From an uncultured Pelagibacteraceae bacterium (GTDB lineage Bacteria; Pseudomonadota; Alphaproteobacteria; Pelagibacterales; Pelagibacteraceae), in assembly GCA_902595115.1 (NCBI GenBank), contig CACJOS010000004.1, forward strand, positions 1 through 47,500: a DNA stretch of 47,500 nt. The letters run 5' to 3'. Below, piece after piece: positions 63-14,340 of the stretch (positions within the stretch are counted from its first letter, which is position 1; the number at the start of each line of letters is the position of its first letter). Position numbers and translations under genes: made by a program. The notes beneath the pieces are model-generated. The model was not told where the DNA came from, ran no database searches, and saw nothing but the letters and a program-made list of their open reading frames with translations.

Positions 63-1470
63 TCTAAATGAAATAAGACAGCAAAATGAAGTTGTGATTA
101 TAGGTAGCGGCCCTGCTGGTATATCTGCAGCTTTACAATTAGAGAAAAGAGGAATTAATTCCGTTATTTTTGAGGCTGGAAATGTTAATTATGATGAAAA
201 GTCACAATCTCTATATGATGGAAAAATAATCGGAGATGAATATCCAGATTTAAAAATTTCAAGATTAAGACAATTTGGTGGAACTTCTGGACATTGGGGA
301 GGCAGTTGTCTCGAGTTAGATAGTTACGATTTTAAAAAATGGCCTATAACCAAATCAGCTTTGGATCCATACCGGCAAAACTCTTATGAAATTTTAAACA
401 TAAAAGGAAATTTTTACAAAAAAAGCTTTAATGATTATTTTGATTTTTTTAATTTGAATTGGTCCAACGTAAGATTTAGTGAAAAATATTTTGAAAAAAT
501 TAAGAAATCGAAAAAAATATCTTTAATACTTAATTGCCCGCTCTTAATGTTGAATGGAAAAGATGGCATAATTGAAAATGCAGAGTTTAAAAAAAATTAT
601 AAAAAAAAGGTAAAAGCAAAATATTTTGTAATTGCAACAGGTGGTATTGAAAATTCTAGACTTTTATTATGGATAAAAGAAAATAATAATAATTTATTTG
701 ATGAAAGATTACCCATAGGTAAATTTTGGATGGATCATCCATATCATTCAGTAGCTGAGGGTATAATTTTTCACGATAAATTTCATGAATTTTTAAAAAA
801 ATCAAAAATTGAAAAATATTTTGATTTTAATTGTAATTACTCTTTTTACTTCTCTCCAAAAAGAAATTTTATAGATCAATCTAATCTATTAAATACTTGT
901 CTTCTTTTTGATATTAGGCAAATTGATAGAGAATTCAAAAATGATTTTTTAAATAGATTGAAATGTTTAGCACCTAATGTAGTTAAAAATAAATTTTTTT
1001 TTGAAAAAACATACAAGGATTATAAATTCAGCCTAAGCCTAATAAAAGATCAAAAACCAACTATAGAAAATAAAATTATACTAAGTAATGATAAAGACGA
1101 ATTAGGTATACCTAAACCAATCCTTCATTGGAAAAGGTCTGAAAATGTAAGAAGATCATCAAGAATTATAGTTGAAAGATTTGCTCAATTTTTAATTTCT
1201 GAAAATCTTGGAAGATTGGCTGCTAATCAATTTTTATTTAATAACGAAATATACAAACATGAAAATGGATATCATCACATAGGAGGAACAAGAATGGGAG
1301 CGAACATTAGCGATTCTGTGGTTGACAAAAATTGTAAAGTTCACAAAATACAAAATCTTTTTGTCGCTGGCAGTTCAGTTTTTCCAACTGCAGGACATGC
1401 ATATCCAACTTTAACGATCACACAGTTATCATTGAGATTAGGTGACTATATATATAAATTAATGGCTTAA
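49..1470 (+). CDS. GMC-type FAD-dependent oxidoreductase
   Basis: Predicted flavoprotein alcohol/sugar oxidase or dehydrogenase of the glucose-methanol-choline family. The N-terminus carries a Rossmann FAD motif GSGPAG (residues 19-24) followed by a beta strand ending in FEAG. The C-terminal GMC_oxred_C region has HHIGGTRMG (409-417) and a final AGHAYPTLTI block with the catalytic-region His at about 449. At 473 residues it is short for the family but complete. An in-frame TAG at 46-48 makes ATG 49 the first possible start. It converges with the next gene, the two stop codons overlapping by 4 bp. In a glycan locus it probably oxidises a sugar hydroxyl; the substrate is unknown. Confidence 0.85.
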   Translation: MILNNLNEIRQQNEVVIIGSGPAGISAALQLEKRGINSVIFEAGNVNYDEKSQSLYDGKIIGDEYPDLKISRLRQFGGTSGHWGGSCLELDSYDFKKWPITKSALDPYRQNSYEILNIKGNFYKKSFNDYFDFFNLNWSNVRFSEKYFEKIKKSKKISLILNCPLLMLNGKDGIIENAEFKKNYKKKVKAKYFVIATGGIENSRLLLWIKENNNNLFDERLPIGKFWMDHPYHSVAEGIIFHDKFHEFLKKSKIEKYFDFNCNYSFYFSPKRNFIDQSNLLNTCLLFDIRQIDREFKNDFLNRLKCLAPNVVKNKFFFEKTYKDYKFSLSLIKDQKPTIENKIILSNDKDELGIPKPILHWKRSENVRRSSRIIVERFAQFLISENLGRLAANQFLFNNEIYKHENGYHHIGGTRMGANISDSVVDKNCKVHKIQNLFVAGSSVFPTAGHAYPTLTITQLSLRLGDYIYKLMA

Positions 1471-2246
1471 ATTTTATATAAATTTATATTTAAAGATTTT
1501 CTAAGTTCAGATGATGATTTAATTTTTGAAACGTCATGCCAAGAATCTTTGGATTTGATGAAACCTACTATCTTATTTCTATCAAATTTTGATTTGTAAA
1601 AAATTGAATGACTTTGATAAAATTCTTTCGACTTTTCATGACTCATCATATCGCCTTTCCATATATTCAAATCTTTTTTGTCACTTTTGAAAAAGTTCGT
1701 GCCAAGATCTCTCTCCTTTATTTGAGTTTCATCAGGAAAGTAAATCATTAAACTTACTAATTTATTCTCTGTATCATTATGTGGTGGAATAAAATCTCCA
1801 TTTTTCATTAATGAAAATTCAAATGCTAATCTTACTTCATAAATTCCCATTAGACTTTTTATTTTTCTAATCGCTCTGTTTAAGAAATTTGAGTTTGGAT
1901 TTAGTTTAAAATCAATTGACCTGATATTTTTCCTTTCGTTTATTGAGAATAGTCTATTTTTACATAGTAAAAAAATTTCATTTAGAAATTTTTTTGAATT
2001 AACCTCATTATAAAAATTCTGCCATGCATTTGATTTTTTTAAGAAAATATTAAAGTTACTATCTTTATTATTTAAATATTTTTTGTTTCCAAGGTCATGT
2101 TTATTGTAAAAATATTCTTCCTTTGGAAATTCTTGGCTAAGCGTATTATAAAATTCATTATCAAAAAAATTGTTTTTTTCAAAAATACTAAATGGTTTAT
2201 CTATATCTATATCCATTTCGCTTAATTGTTTTGGTAATTTGAACAT
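1467..2246 (-). CDS. 2OG-Fe(II) oxygenase (prolyl-hydroxylase-like)
   Basis: Predicted non-haem iron, 2-oxoglutarate-dependent hydroxylase. A HxD pair is visible in PPHNDTE (H156, D158), a distal His in SWHDVS (H237), and an Arg twelve residues later (R249, LRKSLNINL) suited to binding the 2OG carboxylate. The order and spacing fit the double-stranded beta-helix oxygenases. It is the last gene of a minus-strand operon starting near 7582, one base downstream of the GT-B-like gene. The substrate could be a sugar or a lipid-linked glycan; this is inferred from context only. It is one of five putative 2OG oxygenases in the window. Confidence 0.75.
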   Translation of the reverse strand: MFKLPKQLSEMDIDIDKPFSIFEKNNFFDNEFYNTLSQEFPKEEYFYNKHDLGNKKYLNNKDSNFNIFLKKSNAWQNFYNEVNSKKFLNEIFLLCKNRLFSINERKNIRSIDFKLNPNSNFLNRAIRKIKSLMGIYEVRLAFEFSLMKNGDFIPPHNDTENKLVSLMIYFPDETQIKERDLGTNFFKSDKKDLNIWKGDMMSHEKSKEFYQSHSIFYKSKFDRNKIVGFIKSKDSWHDVSKIKSSSELRKSLNINLYKI

Positions 2247-2247
2247 A

Positions 2248-3798
2248 TTATTTTGATTTAAAAATAAATTTATCTAAGGACTTTGGGTTTAAAGGAATTA
2301 TATTATTTGGGACAACTATATTGAATTTTTCCTTAGAGTGTAATTGATACGGCATTGTTGATGTTGAAGAAAGAAGTTTTTTTTTATTTTTAACTTCAAT
2401 ACTTTTTGAATTTATCTTAATGTTGCTATTTAAATTTAATTTATTCTTATATTTCATTTTTGGGTGTAATTTTACTGTAAATTTGTAATTTTTATTATAA
2501 TTTCTTAACTCATTAATCATATTGTAACTATCATGAAGACCCAAATAAACAATAAATTGATCATTTGTAGGTTTGTTTTTTTTTATTTTTTCTGTTTTAT
2601 TTTGCCATTTTTTATAAGTTATTTTTATATTTTTAAAATTTTTTTTATACGCATTTAAACTAAATCTGTATTTACAGTTAATTTTATTTGGGAAAAAATT
2701 TGTAAAGCTTATTTTTTTTGATAGATTTTGCCACATTAATCTCTCTGAATATATTCCATGTTGATATCCGACTAAAACACAATTAGGAGAGGTATTTTTA
2801 ATTATGCTGCTCAAAAAATATCCAAAATTATATTCGAAAAGATAATAGTGAAATTTTTTAATTTTTTTATTCATGAAAAATTTTTTAAGATCTTTTTTAT
2901 AAATATTTAATTTGTTATAATTGTGTAACGACATATAAAATAAATTTCTAAATTGCGTTGAGCAATTAATACCGTTTATTATGAAAGTAAATTTATTAGA
3001 TCTTTGAATTAAGTAATAATTACTTAATGATTTAAAGAAATTTTGAATTATCGAAGAAAAACTAATTAAAGACTCCGCTGATAAAGTATTATTCATTTTT
3101 TTTACTTTGAATAAATCTAAGATACTTTTTTGTAAAGAATTTCCTAAATGCGTCTCATCTGTCATTAAAAAATTTAATTTTAAGTAATTCTTCTTAAAAA
3201 AACTTTCTTTATCCTTTTTATAAAAAAGTGGAAAAATCGACAAGCATACTTCTGATGCTTTTTTTATTTTAATTTTATTTGTAGCAATTATTTTTGAAAG
3301 TATGACTAAAACTGAAGCTTTTAAATGAAATTTTAGTGTGCTCAGAAAATAGCTTAAAAAATTTTTTTTTGTTTTTAATGTCGAAATATTATTAATATTA
3401 ATATTAATATTCTTAATTGACTTATACGTCTCATAGAAATATTCGTCATCCGTAACTATTTCTATATTACTTATTTTTTTGATTTTTGAATAATTAATTA
3501 TTTCAGTGATGTTAAATATTTTATTGAATAACTGATTTTTATCATTTCTCTGATTAAATAATTCAAGAGTAAGTATTTCAATACTATTACTTTGCTTTTT
3601 TATCAAATTATAAAAATTTAAAAGTGATTTATTTAACTGAGATTTAAATAATTCAAGTTTTTTATCTGTAAAAAAGTTTTTTTTAATTATTTCACAATTC
3701 TCTAAATGACATGTGCCATATGATAATTGGAATATGATAGAATTTTTTTTTTTTAAATCTACGTCTTTTGATAAATCTAATATTACTATCTTTTTCAA
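2248..3798 (-). CDS. Putative GT-B-like surface carbohydrate biosynthesis protein
   Basis: A 516-residue protein without a firm family. It resembles the GT-B-fold 'surface carbohydrate biosynthesis' proteins (TIGR04326-like, from memory): VGYQHGIYSER at about 344-353 looks like the xQHG nucleotide-sugar-side motif, and VKLHP (442-446) is the KLHP motif shared with the proteins at 20839 and 22726. A simple ATTAAT repeat near 3389-3412 encodes an alternating Ile-Asn tract at residues 129-137. It lies one base from the neighbouring oxygenase and one base from the cyclase gene, so it is co-transcribed with them. Transfer of the sugar made by the adjacent cyclase/CMP-transferase genes is a plausible but unproven role. 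Confidence 0.5.
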   Translation of the reverse strand: MKKIVILDLSKDVDLKKKNSIIFQLSYGTCHLENCEIIKKNFFTDKKLELFKSQLNKSLLNFYNLIKKQSNSIEILTLELFNQRNDKNQLFNKIFNITEIINYSKIKKISNIEIVTDDEYFYETYKSIKNINININNISTLKTKKNFLSYFLSTLKFHLKASVLVILSKIIATNKIKIKKASEVCLSIFPLFYKKDKESFFKKNYLKLNFLMTDETHLGNSLQKSILDLFKVKKMNNTLSAESLISFSSIIQNFFKSLSNYYLIQRSNKFTFIINGINCSTQFRNLFYMSLHNYNKLNIYKKDLKKFFMNKKIKKFHYYLFEYNFGYFLSSIIKNTSPNCVLVGYQHGIYSERLMWQNLSKKISFTNFFPNKINCKYRFSLNAYKKNFKNIKITYKKWQNKTEKIKKNKPTNDQFIVYLGLHDSYNMINELRNYNKNYKFTVKLHPKMKYKNKLNLNSNIKINSKSIEVKNKKKLLSSTSTMPYQLHSKEKFNIVVPNNIIPLNPKSLDKFIFKSK

Positions 3799-3799
3799 T

Positions 3800-4921
3800 T
3801 TAAATCTCTTTTGTTATTTTAAATATTACATCGTTAAGTGCACCAAAATCGTTAATTTCCATAATATTCGATTTACCAACTTTTTTAACTGAAATGTATC
3901 TTGGATTTTTATTTATTTTTTTTTTATCTAAAAAAATCCCCTCGTAAATTGTTGAGTGTATTTTTTTTTTTAAATTTGATGGAATCTCCAAACTGGTAGG
4001 CAAATTATATTTAGATAATAATTGTTTTGTGAGTTTATATGTTGTCTCAGAGTTTTTTCCTTTTTGTAACATTATTTCACACAACATACCTAAACCTACA
4101 GCCTCACCATGTCTTAAAAAATCTTTTTTTAAAAACTTATCTGTTGCCATTTCTATAGAGTGCGCAAATGTATGTCCAAAATTTAGGTTTAATCTTTTAT
4201 TTCTTTCTTTAATGTCATTCTTAAAAAAATTGATTTTTGTTTTAAGAGTTTCTAAAATTATATAGGCTAAATTCTTACTATTTAGTCTTTTACATAAGTT
4301 CTTATCTCTCAACAAAAATTTAATAATTTTTTTATTACCAATTAATCCACACTTTATAATTTCTGCAAACCCTGAATAATATTCTCTTGATGGAATATCA
4401 TTAATAATTTTTTCTGAAATATAAACTCTTTTTGGGTGGTAATAATTTCCCATAGAATTTATTATCCCTTTGTAATTAATTCCGGTTTTGCCGCCAATAC
4501 AACTATCTACTATCGCTGTCATGGTTGTAGGTATATGAAAATAAGTTGTTCCTCTCAAATACAGTGAACTTAATAACCCACACATATCTCCAACTACACC
4601 CCCACCACAAGAAATAATAACTGAATTCTTAGTAAATTTGTTTTTAATAAGCAGATTAAAAAGTTTTAGAAGGTTATTTAAATTTTTGTTATTTTTTTTT
4701 CCCTCAACCTCTTTAAAAATTAAAATATGACCAGTAATTTTTAATTTTGATTTGATTTCTAAAATTATTTTATTTGATATATTTTTATCATAAATGAATA
4801 AAATTTTTTTATCGGATTTAATTTGATCGATATCTTTGATTATTTTATCATCAATATTTTTTGAATAAATTACCTTATTTTCCTCATTATCGATGACGTA
4901 TGAAATTATGTTGGTTGACAT
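3800..4921 (-). CDS. 3-dehydroquinate synthase-like sugar phosphate cyclase
   Basis: Member of the AroB/sugar-phosphate-cyclase superfamily, which turns a ketose phosphate into a carbocycle using NAD and a divalent metal. Visible motifs: SCGGGVVGD (NAD site, about 104-112), DSCIGGKTGIN (139-149), AEIIK (E187), NFGHTFAHSIE (H250) and RHGEAVGLG (H271). These match the Zn ligands and the GGKTG signature of true dehydroquinate synthases rather than valiolone or scyllo-inosose synthases as I recall them. Length (373) is normal. It sits between a GT-like gene and a KdsB-like CMP transferase with 1-4 bp spacing, which argues for a glycan role rather than shikimate synthesis, although a relocated housekeeping aroB cannot be excluded. 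Confidence 0.85.
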   Translation of the reverse strand: MSTNIISYVIDNEENKVIYSKNIDDKIIKDIDQIKSDKKILFIYDKNISNKIILEIKSKLKITGHILIFKEVEGKKNNKNLNNLLKLFNLLIKNKFTKNSVIISCGGGVVGDMCGLLSSLYLRGTTYFHIPTTMTAIVDSCIGGKTGINYKGIINSMGNYYHPKRVYISEKIINDIPSREYYSGFAEIIKCGLIGNKKIIKFLLRDKNLCKRLNSKNLAYIILETLKTKINFFKNDIKERNKRLNLNFGHTFAHSIEMATDKFLKKDFLRHGEAVGLGMLCEIMLQKGKNSETTYKLTKQLLSKYNLPTSLEIPSNLKKKIHSTIYEGIFLDKKKINKNPRYISVKKVGKSNIMEINDFGALNDVIFKITKEI

Positions 4922-4925
4922 AATG

Positions 4926-5669
4926 TTATTTATAAAACTTAAAAAATCTATCTTTACTCATCTGGCTTTTCGCTCTTTTATAATCCTCAGCAACATCGAC
5001 TGAAAAACTGTCACCTTTTAAACTGATTGTCTTTATAGTAAGACCAATTTCTAAAGCTCTTAATAATTCTATGTCTTCAATTTTTTCTAAATTTGTTGGC
5101 TTTGCTTTTGCGAATTTAAGTAATGCCTCTGGTTTAAATGATATAATTGATAAGTGCTTTAAAAAAAAATTGCTTTTTGATTTTGCCTCGTAAGGAATTT
5201 TGGATCTAGATAAATATAATACCTCATTTTTTTTATTAACTGTAACTTTTATTAAATTTGGATTATCTGGAAGTTTGATCTTTAAAGTAGGTAAAATTAT
5301 ATCCACATCCTTATTTTTTTTGTGAAACTTAATTATTTCATCAATATGGTAAGGACTGATTAATGGTTCATCGCCTTGAATATCTATTACCAGATCATAT
5401 TTTTTTGTTTGTTTAATAAAAGCTTCAGCAATTCTCTCTGTACCATTTAAATGATAGGGAGAAGTCATAATCGTGTTACACTTATGTTTTTTTGCAGCTT
5501 TAACGATTTTGTTACTGTCAGTGCATATTAAAATTTTATCGATAAATTTAGATAAATTCGCTCTTCTGTAAGTATGAACCACTAAAGGCAATCCGCTTAT
5601 TGGTAGTAATGCCTTTGCGGGCAATCTTTTTGATCCCATTCTTGATGGTATTAATCCTAATACTTTCAT
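4926..5669 (-). CDS. KdsB-like CMP-ulosonate cytidylyltransferase
   Basis: Predicted to activate a 3-deoxy-2-ulosonic acid (Kdo type) with CTP to a CMP-sugar. It has the nucleotide-binding loop IPSRMGSKRLPAKAL (about 7-21), the KdsB-type NGTERI (75-80), QGDEP (98-102) and the C-terminal SVDVAED motif near 224. Length of 247 residues is typical of KdsB. It is embedded in an operon between the dehydroquinate-synthase-like cyclase and a FabG-like SDR. It could be the cell's housekeeping KdsB or a specialised paralogue acting on a carbocyclic or modified ulosonate; sequence alone cannot decide. Confidence 0.85.
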   Translation of the reverse strand: MKVLGLIPSRMGSKRLPAKALLPISGLPLVVHTYRRANLSKFIDKILICTDSNKIVKAAKKHKCNTIMTSPYHLNGTERIAEAFIKQTKKYDLVIDIQGDEPLISPYHIDEIIKFHKKNKDVDIILPTLKIKLPDNPNLIKVTVNKKNEVLYLSRSKIPYEAKSKSNFFLKHLSIISFKPEALLKFAKAKPTNLEKIEDIELLRALEIGLTIKTISLKGDSFSVDVAEDYKRAKSQMSKDRFFKFYK

Positions 5670-5678
5670 GGCTTTTTA

Positions 5679-6413
5679 CTAACTTGCTGTCCAACCTCCG
5701 TCTATATTTATTGAAGCACCATTTATATAATCTGATAAGTCAGATAATAAGAAACAAATTAAATTACTCACTTCTATTGGTTCACCCCATCTTTTCTGTG
5801 GAATTCTACTCAACGTCCACTTATAAAGTTTTTTTTTCATTTTAAATTTATTAAAATAGGATGTTTTTACAAATCCAGGATTAATTAGATTAGCTCTGAT
5901 ATTATGAGTTGCCATTTCTTTCGAAAATGATTTGGTTAGTCCTATTAATGCAGTTTTAGTCGAAGCATATCCAGAAAGTTCACTAAAACCATTCTCCCCT
6001 ACTATTGAACCTACGTTTACAATTGATCCTGAATTTCTTTTTTTAATTAAATAATTTGAATATAACTGCATGTTTTCAAATATAGAAAAAAAATTTGTGT
6101 CAAATAAAGTTTTTAAATCTTTTTGTGAAATGCTATTAAATTTTTTTCTTTGTCTTTGCCCAGCATTATTTACAAAGCCATGGATTATTCTTTTATCCTT
6201 TAGGGATTGTTTAAATAACCGTTTGATAATTTTATTATTTGTTACATCTCCAAGGAATATTTTACAATTTTTTAAATTTTGAAATTTTTTTAAATCCGAT
6301 TTAGATCTTGTAATACCATAAACAAAACCACCATAAAATATAATTCTTTTTAATAAGTCATAACCTAGTCCCTTGCCAACCCCTGTAACAATAATATTTT
6401 TTTTTGATAACAT
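5679..6413 (-). CDS. Short-chain dehydrogenase/reductase (FabG-like)
   Basis: Classical SDR of 244 residues: cofactor loop TGVGKGLG (10-17), VNNAG (81-85), catalytic Ser136, Tyr149 and Lys153 (YASTK), and a C-terminal NIDGGW typical of FabG-like enzymes. All catalytic residues are present, so it should be an active NAD(P)-dependent oxidoreductase. It starts at the base where the upstream GT4 gene stops and lies 9 bp from the KdsB-like gene. In that setting it could reduce the keto group of the neighbouring cyclase product, for example a dehydroquinate to quinate type reaction; this is inference. Confidence 0.85.
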   Translation of the reverse strand: MLSKKNIIVTGVGKGLGYDLLKRIIFYGGFVYGITRSKSDLKKFQNLKNCKIFLGDVTNNKIIKRLFKQSLKDKRIIHGFVNNAGQRQRKKFNSISQKDLKTLFDTNFFSIFENMQLYSNYLIKKRNSGSIVNVGSIVGENGFSELSGYASTKTALIGLTKSFSKEMATHNIRANLINPGFVKTSYFNKFKMKKKLYKWTLSRIPQKRWGEPIEVSNLICFLLSDLSDYINGASINIDGGWTAS

Positions 6414-7582
6414 TAATCTGATTTGTTTACTAAATTATATATATTTAAAAACTTTTTTGTGACTAAATTAAGATCATATTTTAATGCTGTTTCATTTATG
6501 CCTACTTTTAATTTTTCAATAAGCTCAGGTTTATTATGTATATCTTGAATTTTTTCACCAAATTTTTCGATCTCTCCTTCTTTTACTATAAATCCATTAT
6601 AGTTGTTAATTATAATTTCATTCGCTCCTTTTGTATCAAAACTTATAATTGGAATACCAGCTGCTAAAGCTTCCACAAATGTGATACCAAAAGACTCAAT
6701 TCTAGATAAATTCACGTATAAGTCAGATTCCATGTATTCCATAATCAAATCTTTCGAAGGTAAATATTCATCTTTGAAGTTTGTAACGTCATCTAAAATT
6801 TTAAAATATGATGAATTTTGTTTAATGATGTCATATTTACTGAGCTCTGACGTATTCTTTCCAAGAATAGTCCATTGAAATTTTATTTTTGCGTCAATTA
6901 ATTTTTTAGATAGTTTTGGTAATAAATCAAAACCTTTTTTTTTTGGTGAATATCTTGCGACAGTAATAAGTTTCAAAATTTTATTTTTCTGTCTAGAATT
7001 TGACTTGTAATTCTCAAACTTTTTTAAATCTACAGCATTAGGAATTAAAATTAATTTTCCTTCACTTATTCCAATTTTTTTTAAGTCATTTTTAATCGTT
7101 TCAGATAAACATGTAAATTTATCAACTTCAAAAACTATTTCTTTCAAGAATTGATCATATTTTTTATCTAGTCTATAACCATAATCAATTTCTGTTTCAA
7201 TTTGAATATCGACTCCCTGAAATGTAACAATAATTTTTTGATTTAGTTTTTTTAATATTTTAATTAAAAGTAAACTCTTATAATTTAAAAAATTAAAGTG
7301 CCATAAATCATAATCATTTAATTTAATTATTTTCGATAAATATAATTTTAAGAAATACAAAAATTCAAAATTAAAATAATATTTTAATAAGAAAGTGATG
7401 CTTAAAATAAACCTATTAAGTATATAAATTTTATACTTGTTATTTGTAAGATTGGTTTTATCAAATAAGTAACAATCGACTTCAACTTTACTGTCAATTA
7501 GTTTGTTGGCAAGATTGTGCACTTGAACTTGTGCACCCCCGGGGGCGGGAAAAAATGCACCTGGTATTAAAGCTATTTTCAT
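6413..7582 (-). CDS. Glycosyltransferase family 4
   Basis: GT-B retaining glycosyltransferase. The N-terminus has PGGAQVQVHNLA (about 14-25), the loop typical of GT4 acceptor domains. The C-terminal domain has ESFGITFVEALAAG (near 310), the E-x7-E nucleotide-sugar motif, followed by a typical NGFIV stretch. At 389 residues it is full length. It begins an apparent minus-strand transcription unit running to 1467, with a 66-bp gap (7583-7648) separating it from the SDR upstream that may hold a promoter. Donor and acceptor cannot be read from sequence. Confidence 0.85.
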   Translation of the reverse strand: MKIALIPGAFFPAPGGAQVQVHNLANKLIDSKVEVDCYLFDKTNLTNNKYKIYILNRFILSITFLLKYYFNFEFLYFLKLYLSKIIKLNDYDLWHFNFLNYKSLLLIKILKKLNQKIIVTFQGVDIQIETEIDYGYRLDKKYDQFLKEIVFEVDKFTCLSETIKNDLKKIGISEGKLILIPNAVDLKKFENYKSNSRQKNKILKLITVARYSPKKKGFDLLPKLSKKLIDAKIKFQWTILGKNTSELSKYDIIKQNSSYFKILDDVTNFKDEYLPSKDLIMEYMESDLYVNLSRIESFGITFVEALAAGIPIISFDTKGANEIIINNYNGFIVKEGEIEKFGEKIQDIHNKPELIEKLKVGINETALKYDLNLVTKKFLNIYNLVNKSD

Positions 7583-7648
7583 AAAACTTAAATTAAGTAT
7601 TTAGAATTTTTAATTTTGTACATTTTAAACATTAAGATAAACGTAATC

Positions 7649-8299
7649 TTATAAATATTCTGAAATACCGCAATCAAAAGGTATTGTAACACCATTTAGA
7701 GATTTAATTTTATTTTTGACTACGAATTGAACAAATAAACCTATTTCTTTTGGCTCGGGAATTTTTTTACCTGGCATACCCTTTTCAAATTTTTTAAGGG
7801 AGATTTTATCTTTTTTAATTAAATTTAATAATCTTTTTGTTTTTATGGGGCCAGGCGCAATATTTATGAAGGAAATATTTTTTTTTTTATAAATTTTGCT
7901 TAGAGATTTAAAAAGCGTTGTGAAACCTGACCTAAGTGAACTTGAAAGTAATAATTCTGTGCCAGGTTGTTTTATAATAAAAGAAGAAATTAAGAAAATG
8001 TAACCATTTTTTTTTACATTAATATCCTTAATTATTTTCGAAAAAGACAGAAATAATTGGTTAAAATATTTCATCCAATCATCATCGGAAATTTTTTCAA
8101 AATCTAAATCTGGAGGACCGCCTGTGTTCAATACTAATATATCTGGTCCTTTATTTTTGGTTATAAAATTATTTACACTTCTTAAAGAAGAAGTATCTAC
8201 TTCTTTTCTTCCCGTTGCATAAGTTCTACAGATTCCTTTTAGTTTTTTATTAATCTCTCTTCCAATTCCTGAGGTTCCACCTAAAATAACTGCTTTCAT
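7649..8299 (-). CDS. Atypical SDR lacking the Tyr-Lys catalytic pair
   Basis: SDR-fold protein of 216 residues with cofactor loop GGTSGIG (7-13) and NTGG (58-61) where NNAG is usual. The catalytic Ser is present (S106), but at the expected spacing the Tyr position is Ser119 and the Lys position is Arg123 (SSSLRSG). The canonical YxxxK is therefore absent, although the fold and the C-terminal APGPIKT loop remain. Its start overlaps the stop of the NeuB-like gene by 4 bp, so the two are probably translationally coupled. It may bind a nucleotide cofactor and act as a non-canonical reductase, dehydratase or partner of the NeuB homologue; function unknown. Confidence 0.7.
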   Translation of the reverse strand: MKAVILGGTSGIGREINKKLKGICRTYATGRKEVDTSSLRSVNNFITKNKGPDILVLNTGGPPDLDFEKISDDDWMKYFNQLFLSFSKIIKDINVKKNGYIFLISSFIIKQPGTELLLSSSLRSGFTTLFKSLSKIYKKKNISFINIAPGPIKTKRLLNLIKKDKISLKKFEKGMPGKKIPEPKEIGLFVQFVVKNKIKSLNGVTIPFDCGISEYL

Positions 8300-9036
8300 T
8301 CAAATACCCACTTTGGCAATTTTTCTCTTCTTTTTATCCCATCGCCCATGGAAATACTAATTTTTTTCCAGTCTTCTAAATAATTCTTTAGATTTTCGAT
8401 GTTTATTGCGTGAAAGTGATCAGGATATTTTTTGTGATCATCAAATTTTACATAAAAAAATATACTTTCCACTTTTAAGGTAATTGCAGAAATAATTAAA
8501 GGTACCATTCTTGCGTGAAGACCAAATGAAATATTTCTTTTTATTTTTTTTTTAATATTTTCAATCGCGTTTAAATTTGCATCTTTGATTTTATCTGAAA
8601 AAGAAGTGTGAATAAATTTAATTTTTTTATACTTTCTGAATTTCCTTGTTATATCACTTATTGAAGCTATACCACATGACAAATATACATCTTTTTTAGT
8701 TTTAATAGCTGCACTAATCAATTTATCATCAAAAAATTTAGGGCTTATAATTTTCCAAAAATCAACTCTTACACTTTTAAATTTATTTATAGTTTGAATA
8801 TTATTAGTTGCAATTCCAAATTTTATTTTTTTCTTTTTAAGAAAAATAGCCATCTCTTTATAAGCATCAATTTTAAGTTCTCTTCTGAATTTTGTACTTC
8901 CATCGTAGTAATTATCTTCTAGTATTTGTACTGTTACTCCATATATTTCGTTAAAAATTAGTCTTTTATACATTTTTTTTAGAGTAGATTTATCTCCTAG
9001 ATGGTTAAGACCTATTTCAGCAATTAATTTTGACAT
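8296..9036 (-). CDS. Divergent NeuB-family (nonulosonic acid synthase-like) protein
   Basis: NeuB-type PEP-condensing TIM-barrel homologue, recognised by the N-terminal AEIGLNHLG (6-14) and overall layout. It is only 246 residues and lacks the C-terminal SAF antifreeze-like domain. Two hallmarks seen in the two other NeuB homologues here are changed: VKFQ is VTVQ (Thr35), and the second metal His (ERH/EKH) aligns with Tyr195. The first metal His is kept (H174, FGLHARM). It may have altered chemistry or be catalytically inactive. It heads a minus-strand unit divergent from a NeuA-like gene, so a role in CMP-nonulosonate synthesis is still the best guess. Confidence 0.65.
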   Translation of the reverse strand: MSKLIAEIGLNHLGDKSTLKKMYKRLIFNEIYGVTVQILEDNYYDGSTKFRRELKIDAYKEMAIFLKKKKIKFGIATNNIQTINKFKSVRVDFWKIISPKFFDDKLISAAIKTKKDVYLSCGIASISDITRKFRKYKKIKFIHTSFSDKIKDANLNAIENIKKKIKRNISFGLHARMVPLIISAITLKVESIFFYVKFDDHKKYPDHFHAINIENLKNYLEDWKKISISMGDGIKRREKLPKWVFE

Positions 9037-12678: not shown

Positions 12679-13527
12679 TTACCAGTACTTAAATTTTTTA
12701 AGCATAGTTTTTTCATCTGTTAAGAATTTTTTTTTACCATTTCCAAGAAAAGATTTATCCTTAAGTAGAATTGATGACAACATTTCCATTCCTTCCTCAG
12801 ATAACGAAGCAGCTTGATCAGTACCCCACATAGATCTATCTAAAGTGATGTGTCTTTCTATTACTTCGGCACCTAAAAAATATGCATAAATACTTGGTGT
12901 AATATTTGACTCATGGCCACTATATCCGACTTGACATTTAAATTTTTGTTTTAAAACTTTAATCATATTTAAATTAAGTTTATCCTCAGGACATGGGTAC
13001 AAAGATACACAATGTAAAATAGTAAAAGGACATTTTAACTTTTTGAAGATTTTTACACATTTTTTAATATTTATCATTTGACACATGCCTGTGGAGATGA
13101 AGGTATGTTTTTTTTGTAAAGCTACCTGTTTAACAAATTCTAAATTTGTTATCAAAGCTGAGGGAATTTTGTTATATTTGAACTTATATTTTTTAATATC
13201 TTTTAAACTATTTACATCAAAGCATGATGCAAATAGATCAATCTTATTTTTTTTTGCATAATTGTTAATTTGTAAAATATCATTATGTTTTAACTCAATC
13301 TTCTTTTTATAGTTCAAATATGTCATATCTCCCCACGGAGTATTTCTAATTTTATTTTTTTCACTATCTGGGATACAAATTTCTAAATCTCTTTTTTGGA
13401 ACTTTACACAATCAAATTTGTATTTTTTTGCTAAATCAATAAGTTTTTTAGCAAGTCTAACAGATCCATTGTGGTTAATACCAATCTCAGCAATCAAAAA
13501 AGGTTTTTTAATATAATTATCTTTCAT
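12679..13527 (-). CDS. NeuB-family nonulosonic acid synthase (NeuB2)
   Basis: PEP-dependent condensing enzyme of the N-acetylneuraminate synthase family. AEIGINHNG (13-21), VKFQ (41-44), ILHCVSLYP (170-178), GYSGHE (H205) and ERHITLDRSMWGTD (H226) are all present, so the metal His pair and the PEP-side Lys are intact. It is 282 residues and ends just after the barrel, without a SAF domain. It lies 6 bp from a second intact NeuB homologue. It probably makes a nonulosonate or a shorter ulosonate; the two paralogues may use different sugars. Confidence 0.85.
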   Translation of the reverse strand: MKDNYIKKPFLIAEIGINHNGSVRLAKKLIDLAKKYKFDCVKFQKRDLEICIPDSEKNKIRNTPWGDMTYLNYKKKIELKHNDILQINNYAKKNKIDLFASCFDVNSLKDIKKYKFKYNKIPSALITNLEFVKQVALQKKHTFISTGMCQMINIKKCVKIFKKLKCPFTILHCVSLYPCPEDKLNLNMIKVLKQKFKCQVGYSGHESNITPSIYAYFLGAEVIERHITLDRSMWGTDQAASLSEEGMEMLSSILLKDKSFLGNGKKKFLTDEKTMLKKFKYW

Positions 13528-13533
13528 TTATTA

Positions 13534-14340
13534 TTAGTCTTTAAATCTATTTCTCAAAAAATACTTAATTTTTTTCTCTTTTTTTGTTGGTGTTTTTTGT
13601 TTTTTACCCAACAGTAATTGAATATTATTACTAAAATCTCTTAGTTCTTTAAACTCTTTTTTTGTTGCCGATAAAATATGATCCGTACCATTAAGTTTTT
13701 TATTTAAAGTAAAATGCTTCTCTATAATTGTAGCGCCTAAACTCATTGCAGTGTAGCATGCTTGATTTCCAATTGTGTGATCTGAATATCCAATTTCATG
13801 ACCAATAAATTTCTCTTTTAACAGTTCTATAGCTCTTAAATTGGCATTTTTAGGACTTAATGGATACTCACTAACACAATGAAGAATTTTTACATCGACA
13901 TTTGATAAAACTTTAACAGATTTTTTTATTTCCTTTATTGTTGATGCACCAGTCGAAAGGAAAATTGTTTTACAGTTTCTATTCAAATATTTTAATAAAT
14001 TCAAATCCGTCATTTTACCAGATGCGATTTTTATATTTTTAAGCTTAAGCTTTTCACATAAAAATTTAGCTCTTTCTAAACTGAATGGAGAACTAAAAAA
14101 TTTAATTCTATTTTTTTCACTAAATTTTTTTAGATCAATATGGTCTTGGTTACTAAGTGAAACTCTTTTGAACCATTTGTATTCTGGATCTTTTTTTTTT
14201 AAACAGTCCAAATTATAAGATTGGAATTTTACGAAATCTGCACCTGCACTTTTAGCCTGTAAAATCATTTTTTTTGAAAAATGAATTTTACCAATATGGT
14301 TTTCACCAATTTCTGCAATAAGTACAACTTTTTTAGACAT
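13534..14340 (-). CDS. NeuB-family nonulosonic acid synthase (NeuB3)
   Basis: Second intact NeuB-type synthase, 268 residues. Motifs: AEIGENHIG (9-17), VKFQ (37-40), ASGKMTDLN (106-114), LSTGAST (129-135), ILHCVSEYP (152-160), GYSDHT (H188) and EKHFTLN (H209). No SAF domain follows; the last 40 residues are a Lys-rich helix. First gene of the minus-strand unit, 56 bp from the divergent DegT gene. It is clearly distinct in sequence from NeuB2, so this is not a recent duplication. Confidence 0.85.
   Translation of the reverse strand: MSKKVVLIAEIGENHIGKIHFSKKMILQAKSAGADFVKFQSYNLDCLKKKDPEYKWFKRVSLSNQDHIDLKKFSEKNRIKFFSSPFSLERAKFLCEKLKLKNIKIASGKMTDLNLLKYLNRNCKTIFLSTGASTIKEIKKSVKVLSNVDVKILHCVSEYPLSPKNANLRAIELLKEKFIGHEIGYSDHTIGNQACYTAMSLGATIIEKHFTLNKKLNGTDHILSATKKEFKELRDFSNNIQLLLGKKQKTPTKKEKKIKYFLRNRFKD

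What the first reader, a model, noticed from the sequence alone, without database searches (positions are those of the whole stretch)
3800..6413. Cyclase, KdsB-like CMP transferase and SDR in one operon: possible CMP-activated carbocyclic ulosonate
A dehydroquinate-synthase-type cyclase with intact GGKTG and metal residues is directly followed by a KdsB-like CMP transferase; a classical SDR and a GT4 precede them and a GT-B-like protein ends the unit, with 0-9 bp spacing. DHQ synthase converts a 3-deoxy-2-ulosonate phosphate to a carbocycle that keeps the carboxylate and tertiary hydroxyl, formally resembling the substrate KdsB activates. A pathway to a quinate-like, CMP-linked glycan unit is conceivable. 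Chemistry at a tertiary non-anomeric hydroxyl would be unusual. The simpler alternative is a relocated housekeeping aroB and kdsB.
Basis: partly seen in the sequence, partly recalled or inferred. Interest (0 to 1): 0.75.

Follow-up and report, generated by a model that had tools for sequence, protein, structure and literature searches.

The report
Three-gene cassette for CMP-activated sugar acid
A marine bacterium carries, in its surface-sugar genes, a conserved three-gene set that looks like a dedicated route from an aromatic-pathway intermediate to a new CMP-activated acidic sugar; the exact product (carbocycle or deoxy sugar) is not yet known.

Summary
SDR, KdsB-like and AroB-like genes form a conserved cassette. 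A strict search of 397 genomes of the order with cassette AroBs found 14; in all 14 the three genes are neighbours in that order. Nitrospina and Prochlorococcus have it too. The AroB is not housekeeping: cassette AroBs form one clade, and 11 of 11 of these genomes examined keep a normal aroB. The KdsB's subfamily has as neighbour AroB (32 of 75 rows) or a HAD phosphatase-like gene (32 of 75), never both. One viral contig has cassette-type AroB and SDR near a cytidylyltransferase fused to a true DAHP synthase. I conclude that the cassette makes a CMP-activated acid from DAHP: AroB removes phosphate by DHQ-synthase chemistry, the SDR reduces, KdsB adds CMP. That step is inference; AroB keeps nearly all residues needed to make dehydroquinate. 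Nothing was tested biochemically.

The parts
3800..4921 (-). AroB-like (DHQ synthase superfamily) enzyme, cassette-specific clade
   Evidence: PF01761 and PF24621; TIGR01357 256.4 bits, under the 305 cut-off; in one clade of 32 rows (31 cassette loci, some identical, plus viral L124), SH-aLRT 99; catalytic and substrate residues kept
4926..5669 (-). KdsB-like CMP transferase, subfamily found beside either AroB+SDR or a HAD hydrolase
   Evidence: PF02348; NF003952 234 bits over cut-off 193, TIGR00466 150.9 under 155.2; 76-row clade 100/100
5679..6413 (-). classical SDR of the cassette; NNAG-x-R-x-R, S136, Y149, K153, W209
   Evidence: PF13561/PF00106; residues kept in 30 of 30 SDRs over 215 aa (29 cassette loci plus L124; the short ORFs of L050, L051 and L060 left out); resembles FabG and KduD about equally by NCBIfam score
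2248..3798 (-). candidate glycosyltransferase for the CMP product (HP and Ser-Thr motifs, weak GT-B fold); TTG start
   Evidence: Homologues in 7 other KdsB-subfamily loci, all without the AroB; HP and S/T residues invariant in 8 rows; Foldseek best CalG1 E 4.5e-4; VIA-align 5wc6 polysialyltransferase Z 8.0, tied with UDP-GlcNAc 2-epimerase 4zht Z 8.0
6413..7582 (-). GT4 glycosyltransferase, same operon by spacing, not part of the conserved cassette
   Evidence: PF00534, PF13439; among the 31 triad loci only the window has its cluster (c36), which recurs in 4 non-cassette loci
1467..2246 (-). protein following the 2248 gene by 1 bp, sub-threshold 2OG-Fe(II) oxygenase match; same unit by spacing only
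   Evidence: PF13640 19.9 bits against cut-off 27

Best explanation
The SDR, KdsB-like and AroB-like genes are a dedicated cassette, apparently passed between phyla, that sits in surface-polysaccharide gene clusters. [quoted passage not shown] The AroB-like enzyme uses DHQ-synthase chemistry (oxidation at C5 by bound NAD, loss of the 7-phosphate). The SDR reduces the remaining ketone. The KdsB-like enzyme joins the 2-hydroxyl to CMP, and a neighbouring transferase (perhaps the 2248 protein) adds the unit to the polysaccharide. Most likely the ring stays a pyranose and the product is CMP-3,7-dideoxy-hept-2-ulosonate: the AroB-like enzyme would act as a phosphate-removing deoxygenase (hydride or proton placed on C7) instead of letting the ring open and close to a carbocycle. 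Shown by sequence: the conserved cassette, its distinctness from housekeeping genes, its exchange with a HAD gene, and a DAHP synthase fused to a cytidylyltransferase near AroB+SDR in one viral contig. Inferred: every catalytic step, DAHP as substrate, and the 7-deoxy product. Rough odds: dedicated cassette 0.9; CMP-activated product of AroB+SDR 0.75; DAHP or a close isomer as substrate 0.7; 7-deoxy pyranose rather than carbocycle, given those, 0.6.
For: (1) 14 of 397 genomes of the order match the cassette-AroB profile at E up to 1e-95 (at most 5 candidates per genome were scored, so a lower bound). All 14 have SDR-KdsB-AroB in that order (11; window, G027, G073). In single-contig genome G151 (99% complete) and Prochlorococcus contig L101 the three genes stand between genes of the other strand, so they are self-contained there. 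(2) Cassette AroBs are one clade across Pelagibacterales, Prochlorococcus, Nitrospina and a viral contig, in genomes with a normal aroB as well: 22 of 26 and 11 of 11 (9 of these 11 are genomes by coordinates). (3) Partner exchange in one KdsB subfamily: AroB 32, HAD 32, neither 11, both 0 of 75 rows; the tree needs at least 6 partner changes. AroB-type and HAD-type KdsBs share the same changes from KpsU-like and housekeeping KdsB at KpsU positions 177, 203 and 175. (4) Viral contig L124: cassette-type AroB, SDR, then after one gene a CTP_transf_3-DAHP synthase fusion; the synthase passes TIGR01361 (361 bits, cut-off 268) and fails KdsA (103.5, cut-off 314). (5) Phage-like contig L212: a KdsB of the subfamily by profile score (339 bits) overlaps a KDPG/KHG aldolase gene by 4 bp. 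(6) AroB keeps the conserved DHQ-synthase residues, including those recalled as carboxylate-binding (K229, R243, N247), in 32 of 32 rows. (7) The own genome has a class II DAHP synthase. (8) DHQ synthase itself appears to catalyse only the redox and elimination steps, ring opening and aldol being spontaneous (PMC7144000, passages).
Against: No biochemistry and no glycan structure. AroB keeps nearly all residues for making DHQ, and the same review implies that the elimination product closes to DHQ spontaneously unless the 2-hydroxyl is missing or blocked, so the default product is a carbocycle; I know of no precedent in this family for the proposed interception. Only K154 (to I/V/T, 32 of 32) and H254 (to Q, 8 of 32) depart at sites I recall as NAD-binding and catalytic. 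The partner-exclusion sign test on independent tree pairs is not significant (median p 0.25). 11 of 75 KdsB rows have neither partner; L048, L053 and L055 are such rows nested among cassette KdsBs, and L060 has SDR and KdsB but no AroB behind them. L076 has three genes between KdsB and AroB. The L124 fusion is a single contig; its cytidylyltransferase domain fits a NeuA-like profile best (46 bits). No class I DAHP synthase lies near the bacterial cassettes (class II not sought there). Two cassette genomes (G196, G469) show no second KdsB-type gene, so there the cassette KdsB could also serve Kdo. FabG scores as high as KduD for the SDR. The profile was built from cassette members, and many of its genomes also turned up in the KdsB scan, so the two lines are not fully independent.
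Confidence: 0.45

Rival explanations
1. One reading: the AroB-like enzyme makes dehydroquinate or an isomer, the SDR reduces it to a quinate-like acid, and KdsB puts CMP on the tertiary hydroxyl, giving a CMP-activated carbocyclic ulosonate.
For: Catalytic, metal and substrate residues of DHQ synthase are kept apart from K154 and, in 8 of 32 rows, H254. DHQ is the carbocyclic mimic of the DAH pyranose, so a KdsB that accepts a ulosonate might accept it. Spontaneous cyclisation is the default after elimination (PMC7144000, passages).
Against: CMP on a non-anomeric tertiary carbon cannot act as a glycosyl donor (inference from mechanism). The same KdsB subfamily lies beside a HAD hydrolase or a KDPG-type aldolase, which would supply plain 2-keto-3-deoxy acids. 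In genomes that already have a normal aroB (11 of 11) a second DHQ synthase would be redundant.
Confidence: 0.2
2. Two parallel branches in one glycan: AroB+SDR make a cyclitol acid used as such or as an ester, while KdsB makes CMP-Kdo or another known CMP sugar.
For: SDR+AroB-like pairs of a more divergent kind occur without a detected CMP-transferase gene in viral contigs L125-L129 and in L036.
Against: AroB and HAD exclude each other beside the same KdsB (0 of 75 rows with both), as expected for alternative routes into one step, not for parallel branches. In none of the 14 genomes are the three genes apart.
Confidence: 0.15
3. Some other acidic product, for example an exocyclic enol ether or a stereoisomeric heptulosonate, or a substrate other than DAHP such as an amino-DAHP or another 7-phosphoheptulosonate.
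For: The subfamily differs from housekeeping AroB at several sites invariant there (window T135, H162, R341), so the substrate may not be DAHP itself.
Against: A true DAHP synthase is fused to the cytidylyltransferase in L124. No further gene cluster recurs in every cassette locus (at most 20 of 31).
Confidence: 0.18
4. Relocated housekeeping aroB and kdsB that happen to lie together.
For: They are the only copies found in the 71.75%-complete own assembly.
Against: Second, normal copies in relatives; a separate AroB clade; KdsB outside the clade of the relatives' usual KdsB.
Confidence: 0.02

Closest known systems
3-dehydroquinate synthase AroB (TIGR01357)
   Same: Domain families, metal ligands, NAD motif and the conserved substrate residues
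   Different: Separate clade; 8 of 9 cassette-type AroBs tested score 247-300 bits, under the 305 cut-off (L124 307.8), against 370 for a housekeeping control; K154 and T135 differ from housekeeping in 32 of 32 rows
CMP-Kdo synthetase KdsB/KpsU
   Same: Family; catalytic aspartates, lysine and arginines kept; best PDB match KpsU 1gq9
   Different: Own 76-row clade; I/V, L and S where the KpsU-like L153 and 12 housekeeping KdsBs have Y177, Q203 and G175; partner genes are AroB+SDR or a HAD
KduD, 2-dehydro-3-deoxy-D-gluconate 5-dehydrogenase (SDR)
   Same: Shares R89, RWG and DGGW with KduD 4z9y, which FabG-type 2c07 lacks; a reductase of a 3-deoxy-diulosonate would fit
   Different: 151 bits against a cut-off of 339, no better than FabG at 158; context is biosynthetic
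Sugar phosphate cyclases EEVS and DOIS
   Same: Same superfamily and chemistry (recalled); DOIS 2d2x and cyclase 4p53 are hit by sequence
   Different: Weaker matches (98.6 and 78.3 bits) than the entries named DHQ synthase or AROM (101-156 bits), except 5tpr at 66.4; the cassette enzyme keeps the residues recalled as binding the carboxylate
NDP-hexose 4,6-dehydratase logic (recalled)
   Same: Proposed C5-to-C7 transfer would mirror their C4-to-C6 hydride shift on NAD
   Different: Unrelated fold; loses phosphate, not water; hypothetical here

Membership tests
3-dehydroquinate synthase (AroB equivalog) | Score above TIGR01357 cut-off of 305 bits | tested here: not met
   Window 256.4; 8 of 9 cassette-type members 247-300; L124 307.8 passes; housekeeping control 370.3
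3-dehydroquinate synthase (AroB equivalog) | Catalytic, metal and substrate residues | tested here: met
   D139, K145, N155, E187, K190, K229, E239, R243, N247, H250, H271, R123 kept in 32 of 32 rows; but H254 is Q in 8 of 32 and K154 is I/V/T in 32 of 32. Residue roles recalled from A. nidulans DHQS
3-dehydroquinate synthase (AroB equivalog) | Branches with housekeeping AroB | tested here: not met
   32 cassette-type AroBs one clade, SH-aLRT 99; 28 housekeeping on another side, support 64 only
3-dehydroquinate synthase (AroB equivalog) | Makes DHQ from DAHP | not testable with these tools
   Needs enzyme assay or aroB complementation
KdsB (CMP-Kdo synthetase) | Score above TIGR00466 or NF003948 equivalog cut-off | tested here: not met
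   150.9 against 155.2 and 173.7 against 281; passes only the broad subfamily NF003952, 234 against 193
KdsB (CMP-Kdo synthetase) | Catalytic Asp pair, Arg/Lys of the CTP site | tested here: met
   R10, R15, K19 and D100 in 76 of 76 subfamily rows, D225 in 71 of 76; roles recalled, except that the two aspartates and K19 are named in PMC3149649 (passages)
KdsB (CMP-Kdo synthetase) | Uses Kdo | not testable with these tools
   Positions aligned with KpsU 177 and 203 differ throughout the subfamily; their contacts with Kdo were not verified
KduD-type SDR | Score above TIGR01832 cut-off | tested here: not met
   151.3 against 338.85
TIGR04425 AroB-related phospholyase (cyclizing) | Score above cut-off of 400 | tested here: not met
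   187 bits
CMP-ulosonate glycosyltransferase (2248 protein) | Structural match to CMP-dependent GT-B transferases | tested here: inconclusive
   5wc6 Z 8.0, rmsd 4.9, 226 aligned, tied with 4zht UDP-GlcNAc 2-epimerase Z 8.0, rmsd 6.2, 240 aligned; no sequence match in PDB up to E 10

The most novel reading that the evidence does not exclude
A dehydroquinate-synthase relative has been diverted from aromatic biosynthesis into sugar-nucleotide biosynthesis. It deoxygenates rather than cyclises DAHP, and with an SDR and a KdsB relative yields CMP-3,7-dideoxy-heptulosonate, a seven-carbon ulosonic acid building block that I did not find described, in surface polysaccharides of SAR11, Prochlorococcus and Nitrospina.
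Probability: 0.35. Interest if true: 0.8.

Novelty: new variant of a known kind. Interest (0 to 1): 0.62.

Why it matters
It ties the aromatic (shikimate) entry metabolite to surface-sugar synthesis in some of the most abundant ocean bacteria. It predicts a CMP sugar that can be tested with three small purified enzymes, and offers a DHQ-synthase relative in which elimination may have been uncoupled from cyclisation, a discussed feature of that mechanism. If the carbocycle reading proved right instead, it would be a CMP-activated carbasugar acid, which would be stranger still.

Tried and rejected
Housekeeping relocation: rejected. Sedoheptulose-7-phosphate cyclase reading: disfavoured, since the residues recalled as carboxylate-binding are kept and matches to EEVS/DOIS are weaker than to most DHQ synthases. 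Bradyrhizose as a lead: search listing only, dropped. Kdo-type GT for the 2248 and c26 proteins: folds weakly GT-B, tied with or below non-CMP enzymes; no PDB sequence match for the 2248 profile and two chance-level phospholipase A2 matches for c26; left open. Dedicated ulosonate synthase near bacterial cassettes: with the class I DAHP synthase domain of L124 as query, only L124 itself (also as L210 and L211), a 280-aa protein in L119 (no cassette) and four weak NeuB-like matches, one of them in cassette locus L081; class II was not sought there. Plasmids: KdsB and AroB relatives; the four KdsB neighbourhoods opened had no cassette, one (L150) had KdsB + HAD. Phages: AroB relatives and DAHP-synthase matches only. 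Kdo contacts of KdsB: passages of PMC3149649 did not name them.

Literature: I saw titles and starts of abstracts for 25 of 44 papers, 8 of 8, 3 of 3, 15 of 63 and 20 of 76; none of these appeared to describe the cassette. The Pelagibacterales O-chain paper PMC11898729 was searched for six terms (dehydroquinate, kdsB, Kdo, aroB, CMP, flanked) with no occurrence in its main text; it was not read. That is absence from these searches, not proof. Not done: an SDR tree.
Full report
WHAT IS THERE. On the - strand the window holds, in transcription order, a GT4 (6413-7582), an SDR (5679-6413), a KdsB-like CMP transferase (4926-5669), an AroB-like enzyme (3800-4921), an unknown 516-aa protein (2248-3798) and a 259-aa protein (1467-2246), spaced by a 1-bp overlap and gaps of 9, 4, 1 and 1 bp. 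Pfam confirms the families of the first four and gives none for the last two at E 0.001. The surroundings are a long surface-sugar region with three NeuB-like and further CMP-transferase, aminotransferase-like and glycosyltransferase-like genes (partly by eye). The order is taken to be Pelagibacterales because relative G027 matches named Pelagibacteraceae contigs by coordinates.

NOT HOUSEKEEPING. The own assembly is 919,619 bases in 25 contigs, 71.75% complete, with one DHQ-synthase match (the window gene, 112 bits) and two CTP_transf_3 matches, both in the window. In 121 genomes of the order (own included), 97 have a DHQ-synthase match. The usual copy scores 145-164 bits (two cut short, 129 and 137); a second, weaker class (25-128 bits) appears in 11 genomes including this one. 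Four of the 11 are of the window's type by profile score (window, G073, G027, G047); the other seven are divergent or fragmentary. A tree of 67 AroBs (64 different) puts 32 cassette-type rows, from 31 cassette loci plus viral L124, in one clade (SH-aLRT 99) apart from 28 housekeeping ones. In the 11 new genomes, 11 of 11 have both; by coordinates 9 of these 11 are genomes under other handles, G151 and G269 being new.

A CONSERVED CASSETTE. I searched 397 genomes of the order with a profile of eight cassette-type AroBs at E up to 1e-95. 14 match (a lower bound, as at most five candidates per genome were scored). KdsB played no part in that search, though the profile came from cassette loci and three of the 14 (window, G027, G073) are in it. 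In the other 11 a KdsB-like gene lies beside it in 11 of 11, and regions read out show SDR-KdsB-AroB in that order in 11 of 11, with overlaps of up to 26 bp or gaps of up to 23 bp (ORF starts taken mechanically; the SDR ORF of L198 is short). The window, G027 and G073 have the same order. In a sample of 398 genomes of the phylum only the own genome matches, so the subfamily is rare there. A scan of named genomes by KdsB, which keeps its best 80 loci, found the triad also in Nitrospina (L074), Prochlorococcus (L101, L105, L106), contigs named only as alphaproteobacteria, and a contig labelled Euryarchaeota (L076, three genes between KdsB and AroB, probably misbinned). In single-contig genome G151 (L202) and in Prochlorococcus L101 the three genes stand between genes of the opposite strand, so they are self-sufficient there. 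Nine of the 11 genomes have another CTP_transf_3 gene over 130 bits; G196 and G469 do not, a result against a purely dedicated KdsB.

PARTNER EXCHANGE. The KdsB tree (109 rows) has a 76-row clade with 100/100 support that holds all cassette KdsBs and many that lie next to a HAD hydrolase instead; a representative HAD is HAD_2, PF13419, 115.8 bits. Of 75 rows with neighbourhoods, 32 have AroB, 32 have HAD, 11 neither, none both. L150, a HAD row, was left out because its neighbourhood came from another tool; L062 gives two of the AroB rows; some rows are identical; L068, L069, L093 and L097 among the 'neither' rows lie near contig ends; L060 has SDR but no AroB. Fisher p is 6.6e-12 but takes no account of kinship. 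On the tree at least six partner changes are needed; among independent pairs the two traits never go the same way, yet the sign test is not significant (median p 0.25) because pairs are few. AroB-type and HAD-type KdsBs share the same departures from a KpsU-like plasmid protein (L153) and 12 housekeeping KdsBs: Y177 to I/V, Q203 to L, G175 to S (numbering of the L153 ORF). I read this as: the KdsB takes the same kind of acid in both cases, and AroB+SDR replace a phosphatase in supplying it. That the HAD is a phosphatase is inferred from its family.

THE SUBSTRATE. Three observations point to a 3-deoxy-2-ulosonate phosphate, most likely DAHP. First, residues that I recall as binding DAHP's carboxylate and phosphate in DHQ synthase are kept in 32 of 32 rows. 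Second, in viral contig L124 a cassette-type AroB and SDR are followed, after one gene, by a 498-aa protein with a cytidylyltransferase domain (31.8 bits, cut-off 22.6) fused to a DAHP synthase; the synthase passes TIGR01361 (361 against 268) and NF006421 (409 against 335) and fails KdsA (103.5 against 314). It is a single contig; two further scans found only itself, and no bacterial cassette locus has a class I DAHP synthase nearby. Third, in phage-like contig L212 a KdsB of the subfamily by profile score overlaps a KDPG/KHG aldolase gene (PF01081, 222.9 bits) by 4 bp. The own genome has a class II DAHP synthase and no class I match.

THE CHEMISTRY. For DHQ synthase the review PMC7144000 (passages seen) lists C5 oxidation, C6 enolisation, loss of phosphate, C5 reduction, ring opening and aldol. 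It reports that a 2-deoxy analogue stops before the last two, so these are probably spontaneous. Deoxy model: after elimination the reducing hydride or a proton goes to C7, leaving a 7-deoxy diulosonate; the SDR reduces it; KdsB activates the anomeric 2-hydroxyl as usual. Its strong point is that KdsB then sees a normal ulosonate, as in the HAD and aldolase contexts. Its weak point is that spontaneous cyclisation must be avoided. Departures of the cassette AroB at K154 (I/V/T, 32 of 32) and H254 (Q in 8 of 32) fall on positions I recall as A. nidulans K161 (NAD) and H275 (proton relay; His275 is named in PMC7144000) and would be places to look. The SDR keeps two arginines (NNAG-x-R-x-R), W209 and the catalytic Ser-Tyr-Lys in 30 of 30; R89, RWG and DGGW are shared with KduD 4z9y, whose NCBIfam name is a 5-dehydrogenase of 2-dehydro-3-deoxygluconate, but FabG scores as high.

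THE TRANSFERASE. The 2248 protein has homologues in seven other KdsB-subfamily loci that lack the AroB and conserved HP and Ser-Thr residues. An HP motif is shared by beta-Kdo and sialic acid transferases (PMC10148158 and PMC9587256, passages). The AlphaFold model (pLDDT 73.9) gives CalG1 as the best Foldseek match (E 4.5e-4) and polysialyltransferase 5wc6 at Z 8.0, tied with a UDP-GlcNAc 2-epimerase, so this is a lead only. A second family (c26, 16 loci) is also weakly GT-B, nearest to UDP-GlcNAc 2-epimerases.

VERDICT. The finding is confirmed and strengthened at the level of the cassette, the separation from housekeeping genes, and a CMP-activated acid as likely product. The carbocyclic product is unproven and, in my judgement, less likely than a deoxy-ulosonate. 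Membership in the AroB and KdsB equivalogs is not met by score and tree, though both proteins keep those families' catalytic residues. I rate it a new variant of the known CMP-ulosonate pathways.

Noticed in passing
L124:7480-8976 (viral contig IMGVR_UViG_3300030419_004179): A cytidylyltransferase fused to a genuine DAHP synthase, near cassette-type AroB and SDR; upstream a HAD-nucleotidyltransferase fusion at 3596-4969.
   Followed up: partly
L212:4130-5547 (phage-like contig; also L213, cut): KDPG/KHG aldolase gene overlapping a subfamily KdsB by 4 bp, among phage-like genes.
   Followed up: partly
L125-L129 (viral contigs), about 4200-7600: A divergent SDR+AroB-like pair followed by a protein that looks like a TPP enzyme of acetolactate-synthase type (by eye in L125, L126, L128; not scanned), without a detected CMP transferase.
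   Followed up: no
L041 9236-10975 and L042 3906-5645 (G060, G061): 579-aa proteins with a distant DHQ-synthase domain, possibly fusions.
   Followed up: no
L035 and L039 (G080, G090): A divergent SDR+AroB-like pair with a KdsB-like gene (125-134 bits) four genes upstream of the SDR: a looser version of the same association.
   Followed up: partly
Cassette loci in Pelagibacterales, genes near AroB: CDP-glucose pathway genes (4,6-dehydratase c5 in 18, glucose-1-phosphate cytidylyltransferase c3 in 20, of 31 triad loci against 7 and 8 of 51 others) often lie near the cassette.
   Followed up: partly
L214-L216 (viral contigs), and c12/c19 in L061, L075, L076, L081, L096: What look like a radical SAM protein and a HisC-like aminotransferase (by eye in the viral contigs) lie beside KdsB-like genes there and beside several bacterial cassettes.
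   Followed up: no
window 8296-9036, 12679-13527, 13534-14340: Three NeuB-like genes of 246-282 aa in one cluster, all far below the NeuB and PseI equivalog cut-offs; the first is especially divergent.
   Followed up: no
L076 (contig PABV01000032.1): Contig labelled Euryarchaeota carries a Pelagibacterales-like cassette whose AroB branches inside Pelagibacterales; probably a binning error.
   Followed up: partly
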